Of a stretch of 34,969 nucleotides of DNA, positions 2,241 to 19,886 are shown piece after piece. A program made the translations under genes and the position numbers. The first letter of the stretch is position 1, and each line of letters begins with the position of its first letter. This DNA comes from Candidatus Omnitrophota bacterium (GTDB lineage: Bacteria > Omnitrophota > Gorgyraeia > 2-01-FULL-45-10): positions 1 to 34,969 of the forward strand of contig JAUYOL010000032.1 of the NCBI GenBank assembly GCA_030695905.1, in the 5' to 3' direction. Under the pieces are notes generated by a model, which worked only from the letters and a program-made list of their open reading frames with translations, searched no databases and was not told the origin of the DNA.

Positions 2241-5200
2241 CGGCTTGCTCCTTGCCGGTAGCTTTTTTTGTCTCTGCCTCCACTTGCGCCATTTTTTCTT
2301 TAATACCTTTTTCTATTATTTCGTTGTTTGCGGCAGCTTCATCGGCTCTTCTCTGCGCCTCTTCCCGCTTTTGCGCATCTACCCGTCTTCTCTCCGCGAG
2401 TAATTCTTCCGCCGCCTCTCTCTGGCGCTTTAACTTTAAGTCTTCTCCCGAGACAAGCTTCTTTACCTTTTTTGGCATGGATCTTATGCGCTTTCCCTCG
2501 TATCCGCTTATTTCTTCCTTGGTTATTCCATAGCTGTTGAGATTGGCAATCGTAATGGCATAAGACCCTCTATAAACGCCACGCGCAATTACATATTCTA
2601 CAGACGCCTTTTCAAGCTTTTCTATAGCGTCCCGGTAATCCGCCCAATTGACTCTCTTCGCCAGGAAATTCTCTCTCTGCCTGCGATATTCTCTCATGGA
2701 TATTATGAGTTCTGTTTCCGCGCTTTCCAGCCTTTTCAGATCCCTCTCTAAAGAGGTAAATAAAGAGTCTACTTTATAAATAGCTCCCAATACTCTTTCT
2801 ATCTTTTCCTTATCAATGTTTTTGGCCTTTAAGCGCTCTATGATCTGCCGGGCCTCAAGCCTGCCGCCGTCTAGTATCTCTTTTCTTGCCTCAATACCTA
2901 TATTCATATCCAGCATGCTTGCAACGACCTCCGCCCTTATCTGCGGCAACCATCTGTCTACCCATGCCTGCTTTATCTTTAAACCCGCTATCGCCCTTGC
3001 CACCTCAATGGCTTTCACACTGGCGTCTTCGCTGCTTGAGTCTAACATTCTCTGCTGGAGCATGATCGCGAATTCAGGCATCGCGTCCCTAAACAAGTCG
3101 TCGGTCACTGTTACGTCGGAATTGGTCGTCCTCCTTATCGTCTGCAAATTGTTTTTAGCTATGCCCAGAGCATCCCTGCATATTTTTAAGAAAGCATCCG
3201 CCTCCCGTAATGTATCTGCGGGGCCTATCGATTCTCTGCCTTTCTCTTCCTGCGAATAAGGAACATTCGCGATCTTCACATCATTAGCCCTGTCTCTTTT
3301 TTGTTCCTCGGCAAGCACCACAAGCGCATTGGCAGTCTCCACGTCAGACGCCGCTCTGATATCTTTTTCTGTAGCCGATAGATCCGCTTCTTTCTTATTT
3401 AATCCGGCTAAGGCCGCTTGTTTTTCAGCAATCTTGGCATCCTGGCCAAAAAATAATTTTGTAAGGTCATAACTGAATATCAAGCCTCCGTTTAAAATTA
3501 TTCCCGTAGAGGACTGTTGCCCGCTGCCAGTCGAAGATCCAGAGGTAGAAGTGCCGCTGCTCGAAGCAGGCTTTACGGAGCTCGAAGAAGAAGCGGTAGA
3601 AAGAGGGTGTATTACAGGTGTGCCGGAATCGGTGGCAGGGCCTCCGGGCTGTGTGCCTATCCCGCCAAAACCTCCCGACACAAAAGAAGTTGTCGTAGAA
3701 ATAGGGCTCCATAAGCGGCTATCTCGTTCAATTTTGGCCATTCTTCCGGCCATTACAGCGTTTATGGCAGCATTCGCGTCTTCACTCTTTATCTCTGATA
3801 TGCTTGAAACTGTTATAGGCTCTCCCTGTCGTAACTCTTCCCGCGTGAGATCTGCCGCCCCAGCGTATAAATCTGACATCTGTTTTGAAAGATCCATATG
3901 CAATAAGACTGCTTTCATATCCTGTTCTTCGTCTTCGGCTCTTAACGCGTCACTCTGGGCCCTGAGAGTATCGAGAGTGCCCTGCAAAGTAGTCTTTCTA
4001 TCTATAATATCTTTTCCGGAAACAAACTTCACGTCATTCCTAGCCGCAACCAATTTATCCTTCTTCAACTGCAGGTTACTGGTAGTAGCGTTATACGCAA
4101 GGCCGGTGCTCTTCTTCTGATTATAAAGAGCGATGCCAACGTCATCGTATATTAACTGGGCCTTCTTCACTAAAGCACCTGCGTCTTCGCGTCTTAATAA
4201 TACGGATTTCCATTTTTCACCGCTGAATAGCTCAGCCGCCACAAAGAAGCCGGAAGTATTAGCCATCATTTCAACAGGTATCCCTATCTTTTCCAGCGAC
4301 ATGTACTTCATTATTTCCGCGGTCTCTTTAACGAGCTGCCTGTCGGTATCCATCCATGTCCCATCGAATAATCCCCGGTTCGACATGATCTCTGTTATCC
4401 TCTGATGCATCGCTTCCGGAGTCAAAGACAATATTTCATTTATATTGAGGTCGGCGGCGCTTGCCACCCCTAAAAATGCTTTGTATTGAGTAGCGAGATC
4501 GAGATAGTAAGAATTTGTCCTGTCTCTATTAACAGACAGCTCACTGGCCTCTCTTTTGGTATCCTGAAGTTCTATTTGAAGCTCATCTTTATTCGCAGGG
4601 TTGTCTTTTATGGCCTCTTCAAGGTGCGATTTGATAGCAGCCAGTTTAGATAAGCGGGCATCTGCCAGATTACAGGCGGATTTTGCTTTTCTTAATTCAA
4701 TGGCTATTTTAATGACTCCCGTCGTTGTCGCATTCTCTAAACCTACGACGTTGTTCTCGGCTTTCTTCCTGGCATTTTCCAAAAGCATCACTTCGCCGTA
4801 GTACTCTTTGCCGACGGTTATTTTTATTTTGCCGCCGATAGTCAACGGCATACCGGCCTCCAGATCGAACCCCTCTACTTTTAACGTCGGACGGTTCCCA
4901 AATAATTTATCCAGAGCGCTTCTATCTGTTTTGTTCGCCGTCGCGCTTTGTATGTTTTTCAGAAGCGCGTTCGTTATCACATCTATCGAGGCTTCCAGAT
5001 CGTCAAGTTTACCGCGGAATTCTGCCAGCACCTTCTCGCTGGGGTCCTTTTTAAATGCTCCATAGAATTTCTTTTCCAGCTTTTCACGCTGTTTCAGAAG
5101 GGATTTTAGCTTATGCGCTTCGGGTATCTCAGCAAGCTTTGCCTGCAGGGTCCGCTTAACTGCGCTTACTTCATTTCTCGCCATGGCAATATCCGGCGAG

Positions 5201-8200
5201 CCCTCATGCGCCTTTCGTATATCCCCTGCCAGCCCCGACGAAACATAATGCCCCTCAACGGGTTGCGGCCTGACCAATTTTTCAGCCCTCTCAAGCATCT
5301 CAACATGTTTCGGATCAAGCCGGAACTCTTCGCCAACTCCGGCAGTATTAAATTTCCAACCGCTGATTTTAAGTTTTTCTATATTGTCTTCGTTCTCAAC
5401 CACACGCGTATTGCCGTCGCTCTTTCTTACCAAGATCGCGTACGGCTTCACTTCTTTCTGCCCGAAGAGCGCTACGTCAAACCGCTTTTTAGATACATCG
5501 CGCGCGGAGAATAGCCCAAGGTCCAAACCATAATCTTTCATAAAGGGTATGCCCTCTCCCCTGACCCAATAACTTTCGCCGCTGCAATAAACTATGTCGT
5601 ACTCATGATCGTCGGGAGTTTTGGCGGTTACGAAGCTAAGCCCTTTGTTTAAGCTCTGTAACTCCGTTGATATATTTTGTAAATTACCGCGCTCCATGGC
5701 CAATTGATCCAATACCGCGGAATATTTCCGGGAGCTTTCGGTAGCCGCTGATACCGGCACCAACTGTCCCCGGCTGTCGGTGTATTGTTTTAGTCTTTCT
5801 CTGGCGACTTGTTCTGCCAAGGTCGCCGCTTCTTTCTCCAGTGTCGTTATTCTACCGCCGACTTCCCTGGCCTGCCTTGAAAGCTGCTCTCTTCTTATTC
5901 TTGTGGCTTTAACTTCATTTTCAAATTTTAAGATGCCGTTAAAAGCCCTATTAAAGGAAGTCATGGGATCCGTCTTTTTATCGTTTCTGAATTCAAGGGC
6001 AAGGAATGAGCCGAATGCCCCGTCCGAACCGAATAATAAACGCGCTCTTAACAATACACTTGTTTCCTTCTCCGCCCGCTTTAAGTTGTAATCAAGGGTA
6101 GCCATTTGAGAATTTACATTGCTCAATAATTCGCCCATGCTCTCTGCTGTCTCTACAATGCCATATCTGTCCTTAAGCATCTTACCGGTCGAATCGCTTA
6201 TAATATTCTTGCTAAGCTCTCTCCACGCTGTAAAATCGGAGCTCAATGTTATATTGTCAGCAGGTTTTAACCTCAAGAGCTTCTTTATATCCTTTCGCAC
6301 ATCCTCCATTACATCATCCTGCTGCCGTATAGAATTCTCTATTTCGTTACGCATGCGTTCTATCTCGGCGTCAGAATATTGCAATTTCACGTTTCTTCTT
6401 GCCGCGGCTTCTATCTGGCTGAAGAACTCATCGCGCATCTTTACATAATTTTCTTTCTTCTGATAAGCCTCGACATATCTTGTCTGATAACTGTATATTT
6501 TATTCAGAAGATCCTGTATGGCCTTGTTTGTCAAAAGTCTCTGCCATACCGGCCTGTAACGCGCTATATCCTCTCTTACCGGCCCGGCAGGGTTTATTAA
6601 ATAGAAACTTACTTCTCCTCCGGATTGAATTCCTCCCACGAGGCCTAATTTCATGATAGCTGCTAATTGCACCTTGTCCTGCGCCGTCAAAACGATGCCC
6701 TCTTGCTTAGCTATTTCCTCGAGCACCGTGTAATGATCTATGGTGTCCAAGCTCCTTAGAAATACTTGGTCTACGGTCAAGTCTGAATAAATTGGCGCCG
6801 TTGTTTCGGCTGTGGCGGCGGATTTTTCCAATTCTTCCATCCTCGCGGCATAAAACTGTTTAATCGCCTCGAGTTTTTCACGGATAGAATCTCTTATCTT
6901 GCTAAAGAATGTTTCCTTGTAGAGCTCTTCCAGAAGCGCGGAAGCCTTTTCTCTTAAAGTGACCTCGACAATACTTTTTACCACATTTATCTCGCTGTCA
7001 GGCCTGCCCTTTAGCAGCACATCTACCCTGTCTTTTGCCTTGGCTATGGCATAAATAATATCTTCGCTTTTGAGCACTCCTGCAGCGCGCTTCCTATTCT
7101 CCAACTCCTCAAAGAAGGTCCTCGCTATCGTATCTATCAGGATCTTCTTCTCAAGATCCTCTTTTGTCGCCAAATCAAGATTTATATTATTACGGACATA
7201 GTCTGTGAAGGCATATTCGATTATGGTGGCAAAACGTTTTACCTTGTTCTCCCTCAGAGCTTCTTCTATCTGCTTTAGGCGGTTTCCATAGTAATCGATT
7301 TCCGCCTTGCCGGCAGTTTGTGTCGCGGATGGCTGCGGCGCGGGCGCGGTCGTTGGCGCGGACGGCTGCGTTGTAACTGGCGCGGCAGGTTGTGCCGCGG
7401 GTGCGGTCGTTGGTTGTGTCGCTACAGGCTGGGTCGTGGACTGTGTCGCAGCGGGTTGCGTAGCTTGTGAAATCATCGTCGTGGCCGTTTTTTCCGCGAA
7501 TCTGTGCGCCGCAAGTGTCGCCGGTGAAATAGATGCATGCACCATACAAATAAAAGTCATGGCGATTGCCGTACATAACACAATAGTTGTCAATGCCCTC
7601 CTGGGCGCCGGCATCGAAAACGTGTCTGCGATACCGCGCAGGCGATCTGCGAGAACGCGCCGGACGCGGGCCTTGAATAGCGCCCATGGTGTGCCGGCCT
7701 CACGTTTTCTAATAATGGACTCGATGGCTTTCCGCCCCGCTTCCAGTTGTCTCAGTCGTTCATCTTTTAGCCTATATTGCAGCATAAGATCGGCGTAGAG
7801 CTGGCCTTTACTATCAAGACCCTGCATCCTCGCGCCGATACCGGCCATATCTTCGGTAACCGCCGCGCATTGCCCTTCGACTTTCATTAATTCAATTTTT
7901 AGCTGTGCTGTCTCCTGGGATGCAAATTCGGGCTTCGCTTTCTCTCGCGCGATGGCGGCTTTTTCTCTTTCTATCATGAATACCATTACCGCTTTCGCGT
8001 CGGTCAGGCCGAGGCGTCTTAATTGCGGCGCGTCATACCAGATCGGGATAGCTTCGGGCTTTACTCCGGTGATCTTTACAAGCCGCTGCCAATCGTTGAT
8101 ACCGCCCTGATCACGCAAAGACAGCTTATACTTATTAAAGAAATAATTGAGTACAATAGTTTTTGAAACATTGCTTAACAGCGCCCATTCAGGGCTTGCC

Positions 8201-11200
8201 ATAACAATCTTCAACCCGGCAATGGCTTGCTCCAATGTCGCAGGTACTGTGGGAGTTGGCCCTGGGGGAACAGGAACAGCTAATCTCCCGATCTTAACAA
8301 ATTTTTCTTCATCTGCTTCGCTTATTTCCGGTTTTTTCAATAAGACTGCGAGGATTATGGCTGCTTTTATACGGGCATAAATTTTAAATGAAAAATAAGC
8401 TATTATTATCAGCCCAAGAGCTACTGCAAAGCCCAAGCCTATAGTTTCATAAAGCGTGCTCACAGGACTTACGGGCATTCCCGGCATAGCTTCAACAATA
8501 TCTACCCCGGCAAATGCGGCGCTTGCAGTTTGCGGCGCGGCAAATAAAGCGCTTAAGCCGGAAAATCCCATGCCCGCCATAAGCCATCCGGGGATCGGCC
8601 CTCGAGCGGGCTTGCCTTCAGGAGATTCTGGCTTTGCGGGAGAAGCTGAAAAAGTAAAATTAGGTCTCAATTCAAAAGCAGGCTGATTTGAATTAACCCG
8701 CCCTTCGACAACCAGAACAAGAACATCGAGCTTGCGTCCCAGTAAGGCATTGGGTTTCGGTATAGGAACTTCTATCGTTTGCCAATTCCCGAAATTTTTA
8801 TAGTACTTACCGATCTCCACATAAAATTGATAATAATTTTGTTCCCTTCCATCTTTTATTTCATGAAATTCGATCTTAATCTTCTCCGGCACTTTTCCTT
8901 TTTGCGCCTTGAAATCGAAAGAGACCTGGTTTAAACCTGATATGGAAACTTGCGCTTCTGATTTAAACCAATGAAAGCCAAAGTCCCCTTCACCGTTAAA
9001 TGGGAAAGAAAGCTGAATAGCGCCGTCATCTTTCTCGATAGCTTGCAATTTTTCCGCTGCATCCCCCCCGTGTACCGCTGCGCGGAAAATTTGCTGGTTA
9101 CTCACCATTGCCAAATCCGCCTGATCCGGGAACGCTTTAAACCGATAAACTGCCCCAAAATTTGCTTGAAGAGACCCATATCGTCCACGATATGCGGGAT
9201 TCCCCTGAATAGCGCGTTTAATATTCCCTTGTGTCGATGGCGCCAGCAGGCCCGAAATTAAGAAATAATCATTGCTGGATACCCTCCATTGACTGCTTTC
9301 CGGCTTTACATCTTTCATTTGATAGGCATCAGCGAAACCGAATGGACCGAAAACTCCTTCCGCTTGATAGGCGCCGCTTAATGGCACCAAGGTATGTTGC
9401 GGATGAGCCGCATAAAGCAAGCCGGCATTTAATGGCGCGGCGTAATTTTCCTGGATTCCGTCTTGCGCGATCGCCTGGACGCCTCCATGAATATAATTGA
9501 ATTCATTTGCGGATGGATCTGACGCGGGACTGCCGGGTATAGGATATCCATGGCGATAAGACGACAGTAAACTTGCCGAAATCAAATGTTGATCTGCCTG
9601 CAATAAAGCACCGTTAAAATCGTGAGAAAAATATAAATAATATGGAAATTGGAAGAGCGCGCCTTCTTTGAGTTCCGGGGCATAGAAATAAATCCCGTTT
9701 TCCTGGACCAATCGATGATTATATTTCATTTGATCCCATTTTACAGAAACATCGCCCAAAACCGATCCAAACAAGTAAACCAGCAGGCTTTCGCTGTAAA
9801 TTTGATCGTAATAAATTACGTTCCCGGATGGTTCTGTATTTTTCTTCCCTTCTTCATTATCCGAATAATAATTCGCCGCAAAAAGACCTTTTCTCGCGTT
9901 AAAAAATTTATTCCATTTTATTTCTGAAGTGAAACGGGTGGCTTCCTGAATTGTTTTTTGATCTGTTGGATCATTGGAATCACTCAGAGCCCCCACAACA
10001 CTTAACATGTCGCCGATAAGGAATGCGTTATCCAGGATATTAACCCGCCCCAACTGGTTAGGGTCAGGACGAATGCCCCCATCTTCGGTCATCTGTACCC
10101 ATGGGAGAAGGCCGGTCTCGGGATTGCGAATCCGATTGACCAATCTTATGACTTCAAGTAATTCTTGGCGTGATTTAGCCACTGGGAGATCGGTATCTTT
10201 GATTTCACCGGCAATAACCGCTAAATGCCCTTTGATCAGAAGGCCGTACAATTCAGGTTGAGAATAACGGGCGCCTTCTGTCAAATCTGCACCATTGAGC
10301 TTATAATGATCAAAAACGGTTAAGCCTTCGCGGGCCTTCCCGGTAAGATACAATTTTAAGGTTTTGGTCAGGACATGCTTTCTGAATTCATCGGGAGTGC
10401 TGAAATTTTTAGGTAATTGGCCGGTTCTTGCTTCCTGGATAGCCAAGGTCTTAGCGACCAATTCTTCGGATGTTACTTGACCTGAAACTTGAGTTGCAGA
10501 AGGAATAATCTCCGGCTCATGGCTTTTGCCACTCATAGTCGTTGCAGGGAAAGCTAAGCTCAGGGCAATAACTATCGGGAGTAAAAATCTGAGGGAGAAT
10601 GGCTGTAATTGAATCCGCTGCGGCTGTCTTTGCCCCTTTAGAATAAACTCAATCACCCTATTTCTTATATCCAATATGCTTTTGTAATAATATCTAACAC
10701 CGGCGTTCACATTCGCGACAAATGCCGTTTCAAAAACAAAGGGCCCGATAATCCCGAAAAGCCCCGCAACGAAACCAGTCATACCCAGGATCAGAGTAAC
10801 ATGATTTACTTCCAGTCTCGAATAAAAACCTACCAAATTCATTGTCAACACAGTCAGCGCCAACGCAAAAACAGTTGCTTTACCGGTTATAATCCTACTC
10901 ATGATTTCTTTGATCGACTTATCCCCCTCTTCGTCAAAAATGGGAGTTGGCATATGTACGACTTTTTTGCCCAATAAATAACGGCCTGCGCCAAGTGACG
11001 TATAAAAATAAATTCCTGCATATACCCAACCCTGGAATTGTATGCGAATGAAATTTTTAAAAGTATTCCAGATCAAGCCTCCTTTTTTCGTTATGTCATT
11101 GCTTCTCATTGTCATTGTTAGAGAACTTAATAAAATAAGAAATGTTCCAATTAAAAATAAAGTTACACAAGCACCCCCTATGTGCAGTTTCAGGAAAAAA

Positions 11201-14200
11201 GCACTTCCGAATAGTTGAAAGAAAATAATGTTGATCGATAAAAATATAAACGGCATAAAAGATTCTAATGGTATTGTCATGCCTTGTAAAAAGTTAAATT
11301 TTACATACCATGGAATCTGCTTATTCTTCAAAAAGGAAAGAGTTGCAGGTTTTAATATGCCTGATTTTATCCACTGGCTGATAGGGTTAAGGATTATTTC
11401 GGTATCGCCATGCGCAAATTTGGTCTTTCTCGGGAGGTCTGCATTGATGCTCTCCGGGGCCGCCTCTCCGAAAGATTGCAGTGATTCGAAATGAAGGAAC
11501 AGACTTAAAATAATTTTTCTTGTCAGTCCGCCTTCCGTATTCATAGCTGCCTTAAAAACACTCTTCCTGACATTATAAAGTGGGAGATATTCATCGAACC
11601 CGGCTCGTTCGATATGCCGCATAAAGCCCTGGATAGCTTCTTCTGCGATGCCTCGTTTTTTGATTTCCCGCTCTAAATCTTCCAGACTCAGGCGCATGCA
11701 TTCTCCAAAATTCAGAGTTTCATACTGGACAAATCGCCCAAAATAAAGGTTTCCGGTTGCTGGATTTACAGTTTGCGACACAGCAACGGAAAATGCGGTA
11801 TCTTCACCAACCTGGTTTTCATTCCAATAACCGACTTGCTTTAAGGCTTCTTTCCGAACAAAGGCGTTGTGTCCAAACATTCTGGGAAAACCATAATGAG
11901 CTTCTACTGGAAACAAATATTTAATATAAACTTCGTATCCGTGAGACAGAAGCGCTGAAAACCAGTTTGTTTCTGCATTTGTCACATAAATTGAATTTTG
12001 CGTAAATGCCAAGTCCGGGTCATCTATGAATTCTTTGACAGTTTGCATAAGACCTGCCGGAGGGACGATTGAGTCTTTATCAAGGAGAAGGGCTAATTCT
12101 CCTATTCTAGGTGTACCCAATACAAATGTATTTGCAAAAATACTTTGACCCGCAACGAGGCTGCTTCTCGCAACCGCAAGCGCCTGTTCTGCAGACATAC
12201 CCTGGCCCATTGCCTTTTCAACCAGATCGCTTAACATGTAGCTATGATTCAGATTGCTGCCTTTTTTGAATGAGCCCCGGCGTTCGAATGTACCCCAGGC
12301 AAATTGTGATCGATGTTTTGGTCTCGCAATTACTGAAAAACCCTCGCCTGCATGACTGCGATAAAATGTCATGCGATTATGAAATTCTATTTCATCCTTT
12401 GTCAATTTTTCCTGGTTACTCAATTTTTCCTTAATCTTTGCTTCCAGTCCGAGGGGATCGTTGTCTGACAACTGCATCAGGCCATCGTCATTCACCATAA
12501 TATTCGCTATAGGTTTTCCTGTTTCTACATTGTATCGCCTGACCGCCTCGATAGAACTTTCGAGATTCGCCCGAATAACCGGCCATGGTTCCATATAAAT
12601 AGGTATTTGAATTGTTTGCGTTTTCCATTTGCCGCTATAATTCCCTTCGGGGATCCGATACGAAAAGAATTTGCTATTGACCCGGTAAGTGAATTTATCT
12701 AAATCAAGCAAGATAAACATATGAGCGATTATGTAATAGGCGATAAAAAGAAACATACGGCCCCCTCCAAATATAAGAAGCAGGCTAAGATATGCAAATA
12801 TGGCATATTGACCAAGAAAAAGAGGTATAAATAATGAAGGGATAGATATTATAAGCGGTAAACCATAAATAGTTAATATAGCAGACGAAATCCAAGCAGA
12901 ACCTGCTTTTCTCTGCGGCGATGTCAGAATCTGTTCCCGCGCCGAGGTTTGTTTCGGCTCCTGCGCATTCCTCTTGTACAATTGGTATATGATCAGGCTG
13001 AATACCAGTCCCCATGCAATAATTCCATACGGTATGTTTATATTGTTTGCTATCGGGCTCTGGAAAACACCGGCAATGGCAGCGTTTGCCTGTTGGCCGA
13101 AGAGCGATATAATCCCTGCGGCGCCGATAATGAAAGGAAACAAATTATTAGTGGAGAATGCCAGTCTTGTTCTTAAAGAAGGCGCTTCTGATCTTAACTG
13201 TAATTCTTCCGGGAGCGCCTGCTGGACAATGCTGTTACTTATACTGCTGGTAAATTCATTCAAGGCCCCTGGTCGTGAACCTTTATTATAAAACTTAACC
13301 CACGGTCCTGCATACCGGCTAAGATTATTTCTTAAAAGCTGCCTTGTCGGGGGGTAAGCTTCAGGACGTGTTTTTTCCATATAATATTTGTAATGAAGCA
13401 TTGCTAAAAGCAATGAGGAAATATCGTTGGATTTATTTTCAAGCAGTTTTGAAATGTCAGGCTCTGTTAATGCCAAGAGTTCCCCAACAGGCACCCCAAA
13501 AGCATGAGACAATAATCGCGCTTGCATAGGATCCCTGCTGGCCCAGGCCAGGATAGTCTTCGCGCTGCGCGGCTGGATCATAAACAGGCTTTTTGCCGGC
13601 CCGTTTTTATCCTGCGCGCGGTTTTCTAATTTATCACTTTCGTGAATGGCGGTTAAAAGCAAAAGGACCGCCATGTCTTCCTGGTAATCTGCATTCTTAT
13701 CAGCGTAAACCACCTTAGAGCAAATTCTTGTAAATCCATATAACCTGTTTATCTCGCCCCTTAGGGCGGCTGCATATTGCGCTTCTGATATCTTGAGTTG
13801 CGCGGTAACTTCAGATCTATCCTGATATAACTTTGCTTTTGGGCCTTCTTTCTTCAAACGTCTGTCTATATGCTTTGCTGCTTTCTGCAGGAATATATAC
13901 GCTCCATTTGATGCTTTTACCTTATCCGTATCGACATATTCGCCTTTCAACAACATAAATTCTATGACGGTTTTAACTTCTCCCAGGTGCTGGCCCGTAA
14001 CTATATAATTGCGCAAGACTTCTTTTTTCTGCTCATTGCTTAATTCAACGCCCTGGGGAAGGTTTATACTGTAGCCATTGGGCGTTTCTTGAATAACTAA
14101 TCTGGCGAACTGATTATTGTAGGAGAAATCTATTACTATAGATCTGCTTACTGTCCAATTCTTTGACTCGTATTCGAGTTGAACGGCCGGGCCGGAAATT

Positions 14201-17200
14201 GTCGGCGCGGGGGCAATTGCTGCAGGCACGGACGGCTGCGGTGGTTGTGTCGCCATATACAAATTTTTGATAACAGGAGTTATTGCTGCAATCGCTATTA
14301 AGGCCGGAAATGCCATGGCGCATATTGCAGCAATCAGTCTGATCCTGACAGCGCCTATATTCCTGCCTTTTGTAGTAACAACCGGCCGAGCAGAAGGCAT
14401 CGCTGTCTCCTGTGTCAGCGTTTTAGGGGCTGCGAGGTCTTCAGCCGCAAGCTGTGATTTTGCTCTTTCAAGCGTCGCGTCATCCCACGTAAGGACTTTT
14501 ATAAAGACATATGCCTGGGCGGCGTATTTGCGGATCCCTGCCGCATATCTATCCAGGTCTGCATCATTTTTTGCGCCAATGTAAAGCTCAAGGTATGACT
14601 TATAGACAGCTATTGCATTACCGAATATATCGGCATAAGCGGGCGGATCGAATTCATCCGGGGTCTGGGCCCTGCCTGAACCTGCCGATGTTTCATATCG
14701 GCCTTTGCGCGGAGTGCCCTCTATCGCATATTGAACAAGATATTCATGATATTTTCGCAATACTTCGGCATCGGTTAGTTTATCAAATTCTGTTTTAAGC
14801 TCATTTACCAGCCCAACCTCATTCTCAACTTCCGACAGCCTTATTGTTTCCAGCCGTATTATAAGCTTATTCAACAGGATCATCATCCCGCGATCGTTCT
14901 GGTAATTTTCGTCTATTGATACGCCTTCTGCTTCAAGCGCTTTTACTACAGATCCCGTTGTAATGTACTTACCATCTCCAAAGTGGGAGTAAAACGCTGC
15001 TGTGCGATCCGTAGCCAACCTGCTCGCAACGGCATCGATCATTGTTTCTGAAGGTATTTGCGCGGGGGCCGGTTCGGCTCGCAACTCTTCCAGTTCTGTT
15101 TTAAAATCCACTCGGGCCTTATTGGCTAAAGCAAAAAGCCGATCAAATTCTCTTTTCCCTACCTCAACATCGTCTGTTTTGAAATTATACGCGCGCTTCC
15201 TCAAGGAATCTTTTTCCTGAATAGCGCCTTTAGCGATGTCGGCGCGCATAATAAGATTTTCTATGGCAACTATGTCTCGCTCTCTTATGCGCCTCTCCAA
15301 AGCATGCCTAATGGCGCGTATCTGTCTTATAATAGGTATAACATCCGGCTTGCTTGGCTCGGTCAGCAGTTGCTGAGCCGGAGCTGCTTCCACTGCCAGC
15401 GGCTCACCACCGACTCTGACGACCGCCTCTGTAGACGTATTTCTATGAACAGAGACCGTCCTTAACATGCCTTCGACAGTTCTTGGACTGGGGGTAGGAA
15501 TAACCCATGTGCCGGCTAATTGCTTATCACCCATATCTATTCTGCCGCGTACGGATTTCTTAACCGCGCTCTTCTCATCGCCTGTTAACCCATTATAGAA
15601 TTGCTTCCTGTTGGCTACCCTTGAAAATTCCGTATCAAAATCTTTTTTAGCTTTATTTTTATTCATTCCCTCTGTGATCGATTCGACCAGCATATCCTTT
15701 GTGGCCGATTCTACCTTAGCGAGCCGATCCTCTATCGATATGGACTGCGTACCTTTGGCCGCGAGTGTCCGCTTCATCCTCTCTTTAAATTTAACCATCT
15801 CTTCGGGTGCCGTTGCCCTATTTTCGATACTACCATCAGCATTTTTCAAAATCGTTCTGTAAATAGGTCTCGGCAATGCGAATACCGTCTCCCCTCCCGG
15901 TGGGTAAGACGGTTCAGAAATCAGGCCCTTTGCCTTTAAAGATTCATACGCGTTCGTATACCCTGCCAGCCACAGCTTCTTAACACTCTCGACATCCCTG
16001 TTTTCTATGGCAGCCTGGCCTAAGCTTGTGATAATGGCGTCTAACAGAAAGCTTTGGGCTTGTTTCGGATCGGCCATGCTATTCTTCAGATAGTTGTCAG
16101 ACAACAGGCTGTACTCGCCTGTCTCAAGAAGGTCTTCATACGGCTCTTTTTTGTTTGTGAGTATAGCTACATACGGACGATCGCCTTTGGATGAATCGAA
16201 TTTAGGCAGGATAACTATGTACGATGTCTCTTTCTGCTTTAGAAGTTGCGTCAGGCCTTTTGTGTGGTAACCGCCTGTGACAAGGGCCGCGACATTCTGG
16301 CCGGTAGCTTGCATCTTGTTTATGGTGTTGGTAAGTATCGCGGAGTTTCTCTCTTCCGCCGTTTTATAGAACGCCAGGGCAGGTTGTATATTCTCGAATA
16401 TAACGCCAAGGTCATAGCCGCCATCGATTGCGACGCCGTATTTGGACAAACCTTCTCTGATAAGGCCGGCTACCGATGCGGCGTCCACTCTATTCTTATT
16501 CGCGACCAGCTCTTCCAGGTCACCGTTGGTCAGCTTCAATTCATAAAGGTCTTTTACAAGAGAAACGAACCTTGAGAAATCATGCAGCTTGCGCTGGTAA
16601 TCATTCGTAAAAAGCTTCTCTTTTATAGAGTCCTCGAATTTCCTTACCTCTTCAAATATCTCGACAAGGTCTATCGATTCGTAAAGCGATATGTATTCTG
16701 TGTAGGTGATAAGGCCTTTGTACGGATCCGGAGCTATACCGTATCTTTGGGCAAGCTCCTGCAGGTATATATAATATTCGCTCTGCGAGATCTTATTCAT
16801 TTTGAACGATAAGCTTTTCAGGACCAGCTGCTCCAGGTCCTGCTTCAGCATCTTCTTGCTTAGCACATCTATGAGAGCGTCACGTTCTTTGTTCGCCTTT
16901 TGGAAATTTATCTTCTTCTCTAATTTCAGAGACTCAACAAGCTTCGCGAGATTCTCGTATCTGGTGTAGCTTATACCGTATCTGGCGGCTAATGTATTTA
17001 CGAGTTCCCATCTATCGCTAAAACTGATCTTGCCGTCCTTGTGAAGGACCGAGTTGCTCTCCAGGGCCATCAAATCTTTTGAATAGGCCTTCTCTTTCAG
17101 GCTGTTAAGATTCGCTGTAAGGCTGGCTATATCCTTTCTGGTAAGCTCATTAATGTCATGGATTTTTCTAAACTGCTCCACGTTTTCAAGATAGAGCGGC

Positions 17201-17826
17201 TTGTCTTCGATACCGTAAAGCGCAACTTCGTGATCCGATGTGATCGAAAAGAATTCACCCGCGGAAAGCTTGCCTTTCTTCATGAAATATTTCGCGGTAT
17301 TCTTGCGGATCTCTTCATCGGGGAATGTCTTCAGGATGGATGTATCGATATAGCCTTGAGAACCTTCTATGGCTACCAGCTTTAGGTCATAGTTAGTTAC
17401 TAATGAGTCGAGTATGGACACTATGGATTCTTGAGCTGCTAATGAGGCGTGGGCGTCCTGGATGTTGATGATGGTCTTATCGCCGCCGTTGGTGGATTTG
17501 TAAACTTCCTTAGTAACGGCGACATCTTTGGGAATGGCTATCCCGCCTTGAGGCGTGACCGGCTGGGGCTTTAAAGCAAAATTCCCGTTTTGTCCTTTCG
17601 ACCAAACGGGAGATCCTTCCTGCGCCCAGACTAAATCCTGATTAACAAAACATACTATCAAAATAAGCGCAATGGCCCGGATCCACTTTTTATTCCGCGC
17701 GCTCTGCCAGTCCATGATAAGAGACTTGCGGCCAAGCTCTTCGCGGGTGGATATCGGGTCCAAATGACTAAAAACCGATAGCGATATTTTTTGAACCGAA
17801 TCTCTTCGGCTCCGCCAAGCAAACAT
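1..17826 (-). CDS. Giant multidomain envelope protein (gene A), 3' end beyond window
   Basis: One uninterrupted frame runs from ATG at 17826 to the left edge, at least 5,942 codons with no stop. The start is well fixed: an in-frame TGA lies at 17844-17842, no other ATG lies between, and a weak SD (GAAGGG, 17843-17838) and a good promoter precede it. Visible layout in residues: basic N-terminus, then hydrophobic 48-62 ending near VWAQ (possible late signal peptide); TIKI/ChaN-like about 115-545; hydrophobic 1163-1187 plus Pro/Thr/Gln linker; lysozyme-like about 1365-1500; membrane segments and GT2 about 1560-2400; signal-like 2410-2434; (alpha/alpha)6 glucoamylase-like about 2436-2890; beta-sandwich about 2920-3050; hydrophobic near 3125-3150 and 3412-3430; Thr/Gln/Pro linker 3453-3509; helical and coiled-coil to about 4700; Ser-rich linker 4725-4771; TolC-like stretch; charged helix near 5123-5190; unrecognised to 5942. 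The ORF is seen directly; the overall function (envelope glycan handling) is inferred. Confidence 0.95.
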   Translation of the reverse strand, partial: MFAWRSRRDSVQKISLSVFSHLDPISTREELGRKSLIMDWQSARNKKWIRAIALILIVCFVNQDLVWAQEGSPVWSKGQNGNFALKPQPVTPQGGIAIPKDVAVTKEVYKSTNGGDKTIINIQDAHASLAAQESIVSILDSLVTNYDLKLVAIEGSQGYIDTSILKTFPDEEIRKNTAKYFMKKGKLSAGEFFSITSDHEVALYGIEDKPLYLENVEQFRKIHDINELTRKDIASLTANLNSLKEKAYSKDLMALESNSVLHKDGKISFSDRWELVNTLAARYGISYTRYENLAKLVESLKLEKKINFQKANKERDALIDVLSKKMLKQDLEQLVLKSLSFKMNKISQSEYYIYLQELAQRYGIAPDPYKGLITYTEYISLYESIDLVEIFEEVRKFEDSIKEKLFTNDYQRKLHDFSRFVSLVKDLYELKLTNGDLEELVANKNRVDAASVAGLIREGLSKYGVAIDGGYDLGVIFENIQPALAFYKTAEERNSAILTNTINKMQATGQNVAALVTGGYHTKGLTQLLKQKETSYIVILPKFDSSKGDRPYVAILTNKKEPYEDLLETGEYSLLSDNYLKNSMADPKQAQSFLLDAIITSLGQAAIENRDVESVKKLWLAGYTNAYESLKAKGLISEPSYPPGGETVFALPRPIYRTILKNADGSIENRATAPEEMVKFKERMKRTLAAKGTQSISIEDRLAKVESATKDMLVESITEGMNKNKAKKDFDTEFSRVANRKQFYNGLTGDEKSAVKKSVRGRIDMGDKQLAGTWVIPTPSPRTVEGMLRTVSVHRNTSTEAVVRVGGEPLAVEAAPAQQLLTEPSKPDVIPIIRQIRAIRHALERRIRERDIVAIENLIMRADIAKGAIQEKDSLRKRAYNFKTDDVEVGKREFDRLFALANKARVDFKTELEELRAEPAPAQIPSETMIDAVASRLATDRTAAFYSHFGDGKYITTGSVVKALEAEGVSIDENYQNDRGMMILLNKLIIRLETIRLSEVENEVGLVNELKTEFDKLTDAEVLRKYHEYLVQYAIEGTPRKGRYETSAGSGRAQTPDEFDPPAYADIFGNAIAVYKSYLELYIGAKNDADLDRYAAGIRKYAAQAYVFIKVLTWDDATLERAKSQLAAEDLAAPKTLTQETAMPSARPVVTTKGRNIGAVRIRLIAAICAMAFPALIAIAAITPVIKNLYMATQPPQPSVPAAIAPAPTISGPAVQLEYESKNWTVSRSIVIDFSYNNQFARLVIQETPNGYSINLPQGVELSNEQKKEVLRNYIVTGQHLGEVKTVIEFMLLKGEYVDTDKVKASNGAYIFLQKAAKHIDRRLKKEGPKAKLYQDRSEVTAQLKISEAQYAAALRGEINRLYGFTRICSKVVYADKNADYQEDMAVLLLLTAIHESDKLENRAQDKNGPAKSLFMIQPRSAKTILAWASRDPMQARLLSHAFGVPVGELLALTEPDISKLLENKSNDISSLLLAMLHYKYYMEKTRPEAYPPTRQLLRNNLSRYAGPWVKFYNKGSRPGALNEFTSSISNSIVQQALPEELQLRSEAPSLRTRLAFSTNNLFPFIIGAAGIISLFGQQANAAIAGVFQSPIANNINIPYGIIAWGLVFSLIIYQLYKRNAQEPKQTSAREQILTSPQRKAGSAWISSAILTIYGLPLIISIPSLFIPLFLGQYAIFAYLSLLLIFGGGRMFLFIAYYIIAHMFILLDLDKFTYRVNSKFFSYRIPEGNYSGKWKTQTIQIPIYMEPWPVIRANLESSIEAVRRYNVETGKPIANIMVNDDGLMQLSDNDPLGLEAKIKEKLSNQEKLTKDEIEFHNRMTFYRSHAGEGFSVIARPKHRSQFAWGTFERRGSFKKGSNLNHSYMLSDLVEKAMGQGMSAEQALAVARSSLVAGQSIFANTFVLGTPRIGELALLLDKDSIVPPAGLMQTVKEFIDDPDLAFTQNSIYVTNAETNWFSALLSHGYEVYIKYLFPVEAHYGFPRMFGHNAFVRKEALKQVGYWNENQVGEDTAFSVAVSQTVNPATGNLYFGRFVQYETLNFGECMRLSLEDLEREIKKRGIAEEAIQGFMRHIERAGFDEYLPLYNVRKSVFKAAMNTEGGLTRKIILSLFLHFESLQSFGEAAPESINADLPRKTKFAHGDTEIILNPISQWIKSGILKPATLSFLKNKQIPWYVKFNFLQGMTIPLESFMPFIFLSINIIFFQLFGSAFFLKLHIGGACVTLFLIGTFLILLSSLTMTMRSNDITKKGGLIWNTFKNFIRIQFQGWVYAGIYFYTSLGAGRYLLGKKVVHMPTPIFDEEGDKSIKEIMSRIITGKATVFALALTVLTMNLVGFYSRLEVNHVTLILGMTGFVAGLFGIIGPFVFETAFVANVNAGVRYYYKSILDIRNRVIEFILKGQRQPQRIQLQPFSLRFLLPIVIALSLAFPATTMSGKSHEPEIIPSATQVSGQVTSEELVAKTLAIQEARTGQLPKNFSTPDEFRKHVLTKTLKLYLTGKAREGLTVFDHYKLNGADLTEGARYSQPELYGLLIKGHLAVIAGEIKDTDLPVAKSRQELLEVIRLVNRIRNPETGLLPWVQMTEDGGIRPDPNQLGRVNILDNAFLIGDMLSVVGALSDSNDPTDQKTIQEATRFTSEIKWNKFFNARKGLFAANYYSDNEEGKKNTEPSGNVIYYDQIYSESLLVYLFGSVLGDVSVKWDQMKYNHRLVQENGIYFYAPELKEGALFQFPYYLYFSHDFNGALLQADQHLISASLLSSYRHGYPIPGSPASDPSANEFNYIHGGVQAIAQDGIQENYAAPLNAGLLYAAHPQHTLVPLSGAYQAEGVFGPFGFADAYQMKDVKPESSQWRVSSNDYFLISGLLAPSTQGNIKRAIQGNPAYRGRYGSLQANFGAVYRFKAFPDQADLAMVSNQQIFRAAVHGGDAAEKLQAIEKDDGAIQLSFPFNGEGDFGFHWFKSEAQVSISGLNQVSFDFKAQKGKVPEKIKIEFHEIKDGREQNYYQFYVEIGKYYKNFGNWQTIEVPIPKPNALLGRKLDVLVLVVEGRVNSNQPAFELRPNFTFSASPAKPESPEGKPARGPIPGWLMAGMGFSGLSALFAAPQTASAAFAGVDIVEAMPGMPVSPVSTLYETIGLGFAVALGLIIIAYFSFKIYARIKAAIILAVLLKKPEISEADEEKFVKIGRLAVPVPPGPTPTVPATLEQAIAGLKIVMASPEWALLSNVSKTIVLNYFFNKYKLSLRDQGGINDWQRLVKITGVKPEAIPIWYDAPQLRRLGLTDAKAVMVFMIEREKAAIAREKAKPEFASQETAQLKIELMKVEGQCAAVTEDMAGIGARMQGLDSKGQLYADLMLQYRLKDERLRQLEAGRKAIESIIRKREAGTPWALFKARVRRVLADRLRGIADTFSMPAPRRALTTIVLCTAIAMTFICMVHASISPATLAAHRFAEKTATTMISQATQPAATQSTTQPVATQPTTAPAAQPAAPVTTQPSAPTTAPAPQPSATQTAGKAEIDYYGNRLKQIEEALRENKVKRFATIIEYAFTDYVRNNINLDLATKEDLEKKILIDTIARTFFEELENRKRAAGVLKSEDIIYAIAKAKDRVDVLLKGRPDSEINVVKSIVEVTLREKASALLEELYKETFFSKIRDSIREKLEAIKQFYAARMEELEKSAATAETTAPIYSDLTVDQVFLRSLDTIDHYTVLEEIAKQEGIVLTAQDKVQLAAIMKLGLVGGIQSGGEVSFYLINPAGPVREDIARYRPVWQRLLTNKAIQDLLNKIYSYQTRYVEAYQKKENYVKMRDEFFSQIEAAARRNVKLQYSDAEIERMRNEIENSIRQQDDVMEDVRKDIKKLLRLKPADNITLSSDFTAWRELSKNIISDSTGKMLKDRYGIVETAESMGELLSNVNSQMATLDYNLKRAEKETSVLLRARLLFGSDGAFGSFLALEFRNDKKTDPMTSFNRAFNGILKFENEVKATRIRREQLSRQAREVGGRITTLEKEAATLAEQVARERLKQYTDSRGQLVPVSAATESSRKYSAVLDQLAMERGNLQNISTELQSLNKGLSFVTAKTPDDHEYDIVYCSGESYWVRGEGIPFMKDYGLDLGLFSARDVSKKRFDVALFGQKEVKPYAILVRKSDGNTRVVENEDNIEKLKISGWKFNTAGVGEEFRLDPKHVEMLERAEKLVRPQPVEGHYVSSGLAGDIRKAHEGSPDIAMARNEVSAVKRTLQAKLAEIPEAHKLKSLLKQREKLEKKFYGAFKKDPSEKVLAEFRGKLDDLEASIDVITNALLKNIQSATANKTDRSALDKLFGNRPTLKVEGFDLEAGMPLTIGGKIKITVGKEYYGEVMLLENARKKAENNVVGLENATTTGVIKIAIELRKAKSACNLADARLSKLAAIKSHLEEAIKDNPANKDELQIELQDTKREASELSVNRDRTNSYYLDLATQYKAFLGVASAADLNINEILSLTPEAMHQRITEIMSNRGLFDGTWMDTDRQLVKETAEIMKYMSLEKIGIPVEMMANTSGFFVAAELFSGEKWKSVLLRREDAGALVKKAQLIYDDVGIALYNQKKSTGLAYNATTSNLQLKKDKLVAARNDVKFVSGKDIIDRKTTLQGTLDTLRAQSDALRAEDEEQDMKAVLLHMDLSKQMSDLYAGAADLTREELRQGEPITVSSISEIKSEDANAAINAVMAGRMAKIERDSRLWSPISTTTSFVSGGFGGIGTQPGGPATDSGTPVIHPLSTASSSSSVKPASSSGTSTSGSSTGSGQQSSTGIILNGGLIFSYDLTKLFFGQDAKIAEKQAALAGLNKKEADLSATEKDIRAASDVETANALVVLAEEQKRDRANDVKIANVPYSQEEKGRESIGPADTLREADAFLKICRDALGIAKNNLQTIRRTTNSDVTVTDDLFRDAMPEFAIMLQQRMLDSSSEDASVKAIEVARAIAGLKIKQAWVDRWLPQIRAEVVASMLDMNIGIEARKEILDGGRLEARQIIERLKAKNIDKEKIERVLGAIYKVDSLFTSLERDLKRLESAETELIISMREYRRQRENFLAKRVNWADYRDAIEKLEKASVEYVIARGVYRGSYAITIANLNSYGITKEEISGYEGKRIRSMPKKVKKLVSGEDLKLKRQREAAEELLAERRRVDAQKREEAQRRADEAAANNEIIEKGIKEKMAQVEAETKKATGKEQAVRPVSESLTRAKLDASKEYRNAVAGLLDALNISYGNDRVLNIDDWSNFFKSHEGAHRLNEAEMIEKLKKMIASYGDLTPEQKKSLREIALRDDQVIRWDKHYESGLSMVQRNNLNYSISVEADGRIKGDNKVRINKDDKGYISLTEIGILSYAVTMNMANPQADPKAVINEIIRYERLGEQERRGELTYDGRAFKDYLEWLKRQAIDLDNKEFYKLPPDSALRKLDNNRVRDIIEKTFGDAHYVFGDGTGQGTVGVWNIFRLINTKAQSDKAKDPYKGFENFMRILKDVARQDDVGLERFYEGFTKEKLSKLPNAARLKALMTKAKSLDPVKDYEELVLVNNEIEQELSILREGQIYGNGIYIIKYALEKNPDIFEALTIRDLIPQEIQRILSFIKEHFHFLTTIKPYIQNVYDMKEPFDVTNPDHIGLLTSFYELSRANGWSTAESVYILKRLADAREEARDFIAMLREGNREGVIFTPTPKNEKDFQDIGFLFGYTFSRINSKGGWNNPAYGNMNERIKNMGKIKHAVEGYYIALGEKPGYKITIDKDPDRSGVNVGRIMAWEDYLSARLSNDVNKLERILKIAGNLGSPEHGIKGLQGGLGSTDADFAIEGLRIGIAQDIVNRSGRWELFFDGNGIAKDAISRREVERLINEVRPNVYRSIKDFIKHDPALSKKQNEWHVAGITMAIARDIVTNYKSWQKFFTSDGTIDADKDKAGTPEGDKQKAQRDTNVKQLFGTVIPNLQE
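3250..3730 (-). other. Gene A: Ser-rich linker and TolC-like (outer-membrane efflux) segment
   Basis: Residues about 4700-4859. SPISTTTSFVSGGFGGIG leads into a Gly/Pro/Ser-rich linker (4725-4771, DNA 3514-3654), then GIILNGGLIFSYDLTKLFFG and long helices with Ala/Glu/Lys. TolC-family proteins have short amphipathic beta strands ending in an L-F-x-G-type turn and then very long helices. The similarity is one of pattern, and the linker inside the strand pair is atypical. If right, it would place part of gene A in the outer membrane. Confidence 0.3.
3740..7300 (-). other. Gene A: long helical / coiled-coil region
   Basis: Residues about 3510-4696 are rich in Glu, Lys, Arg, Leu and Ala with long runs lacking Pro or Gly, for example KLEAIKQFYAARMEELEKSA and EKEAATLAEQVARERLKQY. 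Around residue 3930 is an aromatic, strand-like piece (GAFGSFLALEFRN) followed by long helices. No enzyme motif was recognised. Likely a rod or spacer spanning the periplasm or extending from the cell. Confidence 0.6.
7301..7620 (-). other. Gene A: hydrophobic segment plus Thr/Gln/Pro repeat linker
   Basis: A basic stretch and a hydrophobic helix (3412-3430, LTTIVLCTAIAMTFICMV) are followed by a low-complexity linker (about 3453-3509) built from repeats such as ATQP, TTQP, TTAP and APQP. The DNA of the linker (about 7301-7470) is correspondingly repetitive and can be expected to vary in repeat number. It is a flexible spacer before the long helical region. Confidence 0.8.
8680..9060 (-). other. 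Gene A module: beta-sandwich, possibly carbohydrate-binding
   Basis: Residues about 2923-3049 alternate hydrophobic and polar residues in short strands: GAIQLSFPFN, GFHWFKSEAQVSISGL, VSFDFKAQKG, IKIEFHEIKDG, YYQFYVEIGKYY, WQTIEVPIPKP and LDVLVLVVEG. This is the look of a jelly-roll CBM attached to glycoside hydrolases. It follows the glucoamylase-like domain and is followed by a Pro-rich stretch and a hydrophobic segment. No ligand residues are assigned. Confidence 0.45.
9157..10521 (-). other. Gene A module: (alpha/alpha)6 glucoamylase-like domain
   Basis: Residues about 2436-2890, directly after a signal-like segment (2410-2434). Aromatic and acidic motifs recur between helices: RNPETGLLPWVQMTEDGG, LDNAFLIGDM, NEFNYIHGGVQ and GVFGPFGFADAYQM. 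The last resembles the G-x-x-G-F-x-D-A-x-N/Q signature of the glycoamylase (DUF3131-related) barrels that accompany glucan synthases. Such domains cut or trim glucans. Catalytic acids cannot be assigned by eye. Its position after the GT2 module suggests hydrolysis or editing of the glycan made by the transferase. Confidence 0.6.
10627..12909 (-). other. Gene A module: multi-pass family-2 glycosyltransferase
   Basis: Residues about 1640-2400. Several hydrophobic helices (about 1645-1710) lead into a GT-A type catalytic region: QIPIYMEPWPV, then NDD at 1779-1781, a DKD motif at 1916-1918 (the DxD nucleotide-sugar/metal site) and GED at 2007-2009 (the ED motif of processive GT2 enzymes). More membrane helices follow (about 2165-2380). 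This is the layout of cellulose-synthase-like and cyclic-glucan-synthase-like transferases. A clear QxxRW was not seen. It likely makes or exports a glycan across the inner membrane. Direct fusion to a glucoamylase-like domain recalls NdvB-type glucan synthases, though the order and partners differ. Confidence 0.75.
13327..13734 (-). other. Gene A module: lysozyme-like / lytic transglycosylase-like domain
   Basis: Residues about 1365-1500. The segment AIHES (Glu1396) is followed by RAQDKNGPAKSLFMIQP. Lysozyme-fold transglycosylases have a helix ending in E-S (catalytic Glu) and then a G-P-A-x-x-L/G-x-x-Q-x-x-P type segment, notably in phage-type murein hydrolases. Here the Gln-x-x-P core survives as MIQP. 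If active, it would cleave peptidoglycan glycan strands in the periplasm or on another cell. It is preceded by a hydrophobic anchor and linker. Identification rests on this one motif pair, so it is moderate. Confidence 0.45.
14236..14340 (-). other. Gene A: hydrophobic segment plus Pro/Thr/Gln linker
   Basis: An Arg/Lys-containing stretch is followed by about 25 hydrophobic residues (1163-1187) and then a Pro/Ala/Thr/Gln linker starting MATQPPQPSVPAA. Basic residues, a hydrophobic core and a flexible linker together look like a membrane anchor or internal signal peptide leading into the lysozyme-like module. The same arrangement recurs near 7300-7600. Confidence 0.6.
16192..17484 (-). other. 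Gene A module: TIKI/ChaN-like domain
   Basis: Residues about 115-545 of gene A. The module opens with a strand carrying NIQDAH (His126), followed by VAIEGSQG (Glu154), and near its end has VTGGYH (His521). An early D/H motif, an early E-G motif and a late G-x-H motif after a long helical insert are the pattern of the TIKI/TraB/ChaN/EreA superfamily, some members of which are metal-dependent hydrolases. It follows the first hydrophobic segment, so it would be outside the cytoplasm if that segment is a signal peptide. Family assignment is from motif pattern only and the substrate is unknown. Confidence 0.4.
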
Positions 17827-18220: not shown

Positions 18221-18865
18221 ATGCCGCGAAGAATAGTGCCATTAGTAAAAAATGAAGTGTATCATATTTTTTCTCGAAGCATAGCGGAGTTTGTAATCTT
18301 CAACAATAATGAGGAATACAGAAGAATGATGGAAACGATAAAATTTTATAACACCACAAAGCCTCCTTGTAAATTTTCTATTTACAAGGAGTTGGCCGCA
18401 CCAAATAATGAGCCTGGTGGGAAGGAAAAATTGGTAGACATACTGGCTTACTGCCTGATGCCGACTCATTTTCACATGGTATTAAAAGAAACAGACTATG
18501 GGAACATAACAAAGTTCATTCATTCGGTATTAAATAGCTACAGCCAGTACTTTAATACAAGACATCTACGGCACGGCCCATTATGGCAAAGCAGATTTAA
18601 AAATGTACTGGTCAAAGATGATATTCAGCTGCTTCATGTTACCAGATATTTGCACCTAAATCCTGTAACTGCTTTCATTATAAACTCTCCCGACGGGTGG
18701 AAATATTCATCATATATGGAATATATGGGTTTACTTGAAGATTCGGACAAGATTTGTAATTTTTCACAATACATAGCTATCGAGAAGAAATCATATGAGA
18801 AATTTGTTAAGGACAGGATTGGATATCAGCGGGATCTGGCAATGATCAAAGCACATTGTTTGTAG
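18221..18865 (+). CDS. REP-associated tyrosine transposase (RAYT, Y1_Tnp/HUH family)
   Basis: A 214-residue single-strand DNA transposase-like protein. Seen: an N-terminal strand with VYHIFSRS; the HUH motif HFH at 83-85 within CLMPTHFHMVLKE; Tyr107 and Tyr110 in SYSQYFN as catalytic tyrosine candidates; the family signature HGPLWQSRFKNVLV; and RYLHLNPV at 142-149. Length and motif order match full-length RAYTs. Such proteins nick and mobilise REP hairpins and are usually single-copy, domesticated genes rather than IS elements. It is the only + strand gene here. It is flanked by two REP palindromes, the second starting 2 nt after the stop. No terminal inverted repeats or target duplication were seen. 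Confidence 0.92.
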   Translation: MPRRIVPLVKNEVYHIFSRSIAEFVIFNNNEEYRRMMETIKFYNTTKPPCKFSIYKELAAPNNEPGGKEKLVDILAYCLMPTHFHMVLKETDYGNITKFIHSVLNSYSQYFNTRHLRHGPLWQSRFKNVLVKDDIQLLHVTRYLHLNPVTAFIINSPDGWKYSSYMEYMGLLEDSDKICNFSQYIAIEKKSYEKFVKDRIGYQRDLAMIKAHCL

Positions 18866-19853: not shown

Positions 19854-19886
19854 AACCGTCTTACCCACCGGGTGGGTAGGATGGTT
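19854..19886. repeat. REP palindrome copy 3 (overlaps the ATPase stop codon)
   Basis: Sixteen-base arms around central G 19870, core ACCCACCGGGTGGGT. Two positions in the arms are not Watson-Crick but would be G-U pairs in + strand RNA. Its outer end overlaps the TAA stop of the ATPase (19887-19885) by 2 nt and it lies just upstream of the promoter of the following operon. Confidence 0.85.

What the first reader, a model, noticed from the sequence alone, without database searches (positions are those of the whole stretch)
7301..17826. Gene A looks like concatenated secreted proteins with internal signal-like segments
Segments of basic residues, hydrophobic core and small residues or linker occur at residues 48-68, 1163-1187, 2410-2434 and 3412-3430, each just before a new extracytoplasmic-looking module (TIKI-like, lysozyme-like, glucoamylase-like, helical rod). 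This suggests a gene built by fusion of neighbouring exported-protein genes, and possibly a polyprotein cut by signal peptidase into separate products.
Basis: inference. Interest (0 to 1): 0.75.

Follow-up and report, generated by a model that had tools for sequence, protein, structure and literature searches.

The report
Giant bacterial protein with internal export-like segments
This is one more of the giant membrane and cell-surface proteins of the uncultured bacterial phylum Omnitrophota; it joins an exported leader, a sugar-polymer synthase and a sugar-cutting enzyme in one chain, with membrane-crossing segments that probably restart export inside the chain, but nothing shows that it is cut into separate proteins.

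Summary
The four segments are real: residues 47-68, 1161-1183, 2410-2431 and 3409-3429 of a minus-strand ORF of at least 5942 aa, cut by the contig end. They are the inside-to-outside members of about 12 membrane segments. The genome is Omnitrophota. Module identities: the N-terminal module is EreA/ChaN/TIKI-like and is a common start of the phylum's giant ORFs, also found free-standing with a signal peptide. The 'glucoamylase' is a beta-1,2-glucanase-clan domain whose free homologues carry their own signal peptides. The lysozyme label found no support. Module-level fusion of exported proteins is supported, though not from genes seen as neighbours. At the 2410 junction, a relative's ORF (G022) has a textbook signal peptide (ASA|QP) between a synthase tail and the same glucanase domain; in gene A it is a membrane-anchor-like helix. 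From 1161 onward the charges fit one alternating multi-pass chain, so 2410 and 3409 need no cleavage. Only 47-68 followed by 1161 clashes. By a weak classifier, internal segments mostly resemble membrane helices. Signal-peptidase polyprotein processing is possible but unsupported here.

The parts
1..17826 (-). Gene A, at least 5942 aa, C-terminus cut by the contig end
17623..17688 (-). N-terminal signal peptide, residues 47-68 (AIALILIVCFV core, VWA|QE site)
   Evidence: conserved in relatives
16147..17574 (-). N-terminal leader module, residues about 85-560: EreA/ChaN/TIKI-like, with invariant H126, E154, H521
14347..15906 (-). Charged stretch 641-1160 with no hydrophobic segment (minimum dG 3.4); part (about 649-831) shared with relatives
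14278..14346 (-). Internal segment 2, residues 1161-1183: long apolar run, membrane-helix-like, N-side inside by charge
13207..13929 (-).
   Evidence: no match
13096..13164 (-). Weak hydrophobic segment 1555-1577 followed by ANAA
12976..13035 (-). TM helix 1598-1617 (outside to inside)
12733..12882 (-). TM pair 1649-1671 and 1676-1698 before the GT domain
11287..12669 (-). GT2 glycosyltransferase, residues about 1720-2180; DD, DKD, ED and W motifs invariant among gene A and two relatives
10732..11259 (-). TM helices 2190-2212, 2211-2233, 2317-2338, 2343-2365
10534..10599 (-). Internal segment 3, residues 2410-2431; occupies the place of the signal peptide of free and fused homologues
8995..10404 (-). 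Beta-1,2-glucanase-clan (alpha/alpha) domain, residues 2475-2944
8617..8994 (-). Beta-sandwich, CBM-like, residues 2945-3070 (low-confidence model)
8536..8595 (-). Weak hydrophobic segment 3078-3097 with following TASAA
8377..8445 (-). TM helix 3128-3150 (outside to inside)
7540..7602 (-). Internal segment 4, residues 3409-3429, VHA|SI possible site
7312..7494 (-). P/T/A/Q-rich linker, residues 3445-3505
643..6789 (-). Rod, residues 3680-5728, collinear with G014:C89 and, for 3680-4708, with G023:C251

Best explanation
Gene A encodes one multi-pass envelope protein of the Omnitrophota giant-protein kind, built from modules that also exist separately. A normal N-terminal signal peptide (47-68) exports an EreA/ChaN/TIKI-like leader module. 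A membrane-embedded GT2 synthase of the OpgH/MdoH type (1598-2365) sits with its catalytic domain in the cytosol. Segment 2410-2431, probably derived from a signal peptide, restarts export after the synthase and places a beta-1,2-glucanase-clan domain in the periplasm beside the synthase's exit. The chain returns to the cytosol at 3128-3150, and 3409-3429 restarts export again to put the long rod outside. The internal segments most likely stay as membrane anchors and the chain stays whole. Likely role: making and trimming a periplasmic or surface glucan carried on a giant surface protein. Shown: ORF, segments, homology of the GT2 and glucanase modules, signal peptides of the free glucanase homologues, and the signal peptide at the matching junction in G022. 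Inferred: topology, product, lack of cleavage, and function.
For: K/R bias alternates from 1161 to 3409 as a single multi-pass chain requires, ties aside. GT2 match and invariant motifs. Profile of the glucanase module hits beta-1,2-glucanases and the middle domain of cyclic beta-1,2-glucan synthase in the PDB (3e-66, 1.3e-15, 2.7e-12), and its model matches beta-1,2-glucanase EeSGL1 (E 1.1e-12, TM 0.73 by target). Free homologues have N-terminal signal peptides. G022:C87 carries an MdoH-like tail (NCBIfam E 0.0015), TM helices, a textbook signal peptide and a 31%-identical glucanase domain in one ORF. In G258 and G240 a signal-like segment again directly precedes the glucanase domain, in G240 after a cytosolic-type DnaJ domain. 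In most other long ORFs with an internal glucanase domain, no segment precedes it: the segment appears mainly where the upstream part ends on the cytosolic side. Leader module in 158 of 285 phylum genomes, starting ORFs of up to 35113 aa.
Against: The pair 47-68 and 1161-1183 both read as N-side-inside with no hydrophobic segment between (minimum dG 3.4), so no simple single-chain topology satisfies both. The same happens class-wide: for gaps of 200 aa or more with nothing between, orientation pairs are NN 17, CC 2, NC 7, CN 13, against 123 of 133 alternating at short gaps. The SP/TM classifier is weak (AUC 0.69). The E. coli control for long loops was uninformative. The G022 ORF starts at a contig end, so its GT is only a C-terminal tail.
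Confidence: 0.58

Rival explanations
1. Polyprotein: signal peptidase I (or II in relatives with lipoboxes) cuts at the internal segments, releasing the leader, the region after 1161, the glucanase and the rod as separate proteins.
For: Textbook sites at the homologous junction in G022 (ASA|QP) and G258 (VFA|NE). VHA|SI at 3409. Five internal lipobox-type signals in the giants, against about 1 expected from other residues in the same position. Same-orientation NN pairs across long gaps. Known precedent from memory: the cytochrome b-c1 fusion FbcH of Bradyrhizobium.
Against: Gene A's own internal segments are long and membrane-helix-like, with weak sites at 1161 and 2410. Across the set only 20% of isolated internal N-in segments score signal-like, against 83% of N-terminal ones. 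A-x-A motifs are hardly commoner in isolated N-in segments than in hairpins (26 of 45 against 38 of 75).
Confidence: 0.2
2. One ordinary multi-pass synthase with periplasmic insertions, with no history of fused exported genes; the segments are simply its TM helices.
For: Alternating topology from 1161 to 3409. TM helices flanking the GT core resemble those of two relatives' GT modules.
Against: Free exported glucanase homologues with their own signal peptide. The same modules occur in other contexts: leader with other bodies, rod with other middles. The leader lies outside the alternating part.
Confidence: 0.13
3. The glucanase-clan domain is cytosolic, as the related domain of cyclic beta-1,2-glucan synthase is (from memory), and the GT-glucanase part is a divergent cyclic glucan synthase.
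For: Same order GT then PF10091-like domain; profile and fold match to the cyclic glucan synthase middle domain.
Against: Signal peptides in front of the domain in free homologues and in G022 and G258. Closest match is a stand-alone beta-1,2-glucanase. No GH94 phosphorylase domain was found.
Confidence: 0.06
4. Assembly artefact joining separate genes.
For: Contig end cuts the gene; draft genome.
Against: One open frame of 5942 codons; comparable giants in dozens of independent genomes, one of 39687 aa in a single-contig genome; leader and rod are found together in G014 and G023 as well.
Confidence: 0.03

Closest known systems
Omnitrophota giant ORFs, e.g. Velamenicoccus archaeovorus LiM 39,678-aa protein (PMC10066038)
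   Same: Same phylum; multiple TM helices with large exported domains; own search hit a 39687-aa ORF with a GT2 match in a single-contig genome
   Different: Gene A is at least 5942 aa (17.8 kb), truncated, and starts with the EreA/ChaN-like leader, which one search did not find in that genome (G080)
OpgH/MdoH glucan synthase (GT2)
   Same: Processive-type GT2 motifs and flanking TM helices; weak NCBIfam match for gene A (E 0.019) and G022 (E 0.0015)
   Different: Fused to a leader, a glucanase-clan domain and a rod; QIPW in place of QxxRW
Beta-1,2-glucanases of the SGL clan (8xuj, 6imu, 5gzh; GH144/GH162 from memory)
   Same: Profile and fold match
   Different: Divergent (gene A 18-23% identical to free homologues); embedded in a giant; activity untested
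Cyclic beta-1,2-glucan synthase (NdvB/ChvB; 8rf0, 8rf9)
   Same: GT plus PF10091-clan domain in one chain
   Different: No GH94 found; a signal-like segment lies between GT and glucanase
Erythromycin esterase/ChaN/TIKI superfamily
   Same: Best fold matches include EreC, BcR135, HopBA1 and ChaN; two His and a Glu invariant
   Different: Large helical insertion; no significant E-value; leader of giant proteins
FbcH-type bacterial polyprotein (internal signal peptide; from memory)
   Same: Membrane protein followed by an internal signal and an exported domain
   Different: No cleavage shown here

Membership tests
Omnitrophota giant ORF (PMC10066038) | ORF longer than 20 kb | tested here: inconclusive
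   17.8 kb present, truncated by contig end
Omnitrophota giant ORF (PMC10066038) | Several TM helices with large exported domains | tested here: met
EreA/ChaN/TIKI superfamily | Conserved His, Glu, His of the active or metal site | tested here: met
   H126, E154, H521 invariant in 24 sequences; their role is inferred
EreA/ChaN/TIKI superfamily | Profile or fold match | tested here: inconclusive
   PF04187 E 0.011 in 1 of 24; Foldseek best hits in this clan but E > 0.04
GT2 processive glycosyltransferase | GT2 profile | tested here: met
   PF13632 E 1.1e-12
GT2 processive glycosyltransferase | D, DxD, (T/G)ED, QxxRW motifs | tested here: inconclusive
   D, DxD, ED, W invariant; R replaced by P in gene A
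SGL-clan beta-1,2-glucanase | Profile and (alpha/alpha)6 fold | tested here: met
   through the alignment profile; gene A alone finds nothing
SGL-clan beta-1,2-glucanase | Catalytic acids and activity | not tested
   residues not mapped
Lysozyme / transglycosylase | Profile match | tested here: not met
Signal-peptidase-processed polyprotein | Internal segments have signal-peptide form and cleavage sites | tested here: inconclusive
   good in G022 and G258, weak in gene A
Signal-peptidase-processed polyprotein | Separate mature products | not testable with these tools
   needs proteomics

The most novel reading that the evidence does not exclude
Omnitrophota giant proteins are, at least in part, secretory polyproteins: strings of exported and membrane modules, each with its own internal signal (type I, lipobox or Tat-like), released by signal peptidases after one long translation.
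Probability: 0.17. Interest if true: 0.85.

Novelty: new variant of a known kind. Interest (0 to 1): 0.45.

Why it matters
The function of giant ORFs in Omnitrophota is an open question in the literature read here (PMC10066038 says few domains are annotated). This work gives one a concrete reading: an exported leader common to much of the phylum, an OpgH-like synthase and a periplasmic beta-1,2-glucanase-clan enzyme in one chain. It also makes the question 'one chain or many products' testable at named residues, and points to junctions in relatives (G022, G258, G240) where an internal signal is clearest.

Tried and rejected
Lysozyme identity: no profile, PDB or genome match. Neighbouring-gene origin: ten loci with the glucanase domain showed no GT beside it by a simple motif scan. 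A-x-A enrichment as proof of cleavage: little difference between N-in segment groups. E. coli long-loop proteins as an orientation control: nearly all segments uncalled, so uninformative; ordinary genes of G092 gave no long-gap pairs. PDB search with the N-terminal profile: only chance hits. Paper searches for FbcH and for bacterial internal-signal polyproteins gave nothing usable.

Full report
Setting. Gene A is a minus-strand ORF from 17826 to the contig end, 5942 codons without a stop. The window is contig 32 of a 1.82 Mb draft genome. Relatives found by the N-terminal module are all titled Omnitrophota, Omnitrophica or Candidatus taxa of that group. The phylum is known for giant ORFs with many TM helices and exported domains (PMC10066038).

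Observation. Gene A has 11 segments with dG <= 0; shuffled versions have 0-5. The four are the inside-to-outside members of a larger set that includes the helices around a GT2 domain (PF13632, E 1.1e-12).

Modules. The leader (about 85-560) dominates the matches found in 45 of 57 relatives and, as a profile, is found in 158 of 285 phylum genomes, at the start of ORFs from about 500 to 35113 aa. The free-standing copies read in full in two genomes carry an N-terminal hydrophobic signal. H126, E154 and H521 are invariant, and the model (pLDDT 75) finds EreC, BcR135, HopBA1 and ChaN among its best fold matches, none significant alone. The 'glucoamylase' is of the beta-1,2-glucanase clan: the profile hits 8xuj (3e-66), cyclic beta-1,2-glucan synthase (1.3e-15) and endo-beta-1,2-glucanase 6imu (2.7e-12); the model (pLDDT 57) agrees. 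Gene A's copy alone finds no PDB match; it is linked through homologues (E about 1e-10 and, for G022, 1e-65). The rod 3680-5728 is collinear with a 10168-aa giant, and 3680-4708 with a 6014-aa one. The lysozyme label is unsupported.

Fusion. Free homologues of the glucanase module (G101, G205, G057, G048) begin with signal peptides, and these align with 2410-2431. G022:C87 has, in one ORF, an MdoH-like tail (E 0.0015), TM helices, KAKFWPSLTKVFAAFFSLLLVLANPSASA|QP, and a 31%-identical domain. G258 has RIAKAVTTVVLIVIAPVFVFA|NE, and G240 has SSRSFLKTLAVAASAIAFHPLTA|SS after a DnaJ domain. In most of 20 long ORFs with an internal glucanase domain no segment precedes it. So the segment tends to appear where the upstream part ends on the cytosolic side, as expected of a re-export signal. 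Module-level fusion is supported; neighbouring origin is not.

Topology. From 1161 to 3409 the charge bias fits strict alternation, so one multi-pass chain suffices. The exception is 47-68 followed by 1161, both N-side inside, with nothing hydrophobic between. In 93 giant and leader-bearing ORFs, orientation alternates in 123 of 133 clean short-gap pairs, but at gaps of 200 aa or more the pairs are NN 17, CC 2, NC 7, CN 13. This fits repeated export signals, or frustrated chains in which a segment does not insert; the long-gap control was uninformative.

Cleavage. Internal lipobox-type signals number 5 against about 1 expected, for example FSGC|AGN (counting the Cys as +1: FSG|CAGN) and FTG|CGKD. 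Against cleavage, a crude classifier (AUC 0.69) scores 47-68 at 0.90 and the internal three at 0.26, 0.49 and 0.42; only 20% of isolated internal segments score signal-like, against 83% at N-termini. Cleavage is therefore undecided, and unlikely for gene A's own 1161 and 2410 segments.

Verdict. An ordinary member of an extraordinary protein class, with a clear domain reading and a testable internal-signal question.

Noticed in passing
L263 (G240:C51:33500-38900): One ORF of 4015 aa carries a DnaJ domain (E 3e-21), then a Tat-like internal segment (SSRSFLKTLAVAASAIAFHPLTA), then a glucanase-clan domain: cytosolic-type and exported modules in one chain.
   Followed up: partly
G056:C51, G003:C14, G014:C89 giants (L062-L064, L072-L075, L078-L079): Internal lipobox-type signals (FTG|CGKD, FSG|CAGN, LSG|CSQS, LTG|CSLG) deep inside giant ORFs; similar in G021 (ISG|CGST).
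   Followed up: partly
phylum-wide: An EreA/ChaN-like leader module starts many giant ORFs of Omnitrophota and is also free-standing; it could serve as a marker for finding giant genes.
   Followed up: partly
window 21142-34968 (-): Second large ORF (4608 aa, 5' open) with no Pfam match at E 0.01 and five mostly weak hydrophobic segments.
   Followed up: partly
window 18221-18865 (+) and 19885-21060 (-): REP-associated tyrosine transposase-like gene and an AAA/DUF4143 ATPase between the two giants.
   Followed up: no
G047:C94 (20415-aa ORF; L265 holds part): Two glucanase-clan matches about 21 kb apart, both in an open frame of 20415 aa.
   Followed up: no
G014:C89, residues about 3240-3700 (L078-L079): By eye, a second PF10091-like domain and a peptidoglycan-binding-like stretch just before the shared rod.
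   Followed up: no
L067 (G081:C18): Starch-synthase/phosphorylase-like GT-B domain before a GT2 module in one open frame of 1561 aa.
   Followed up: no
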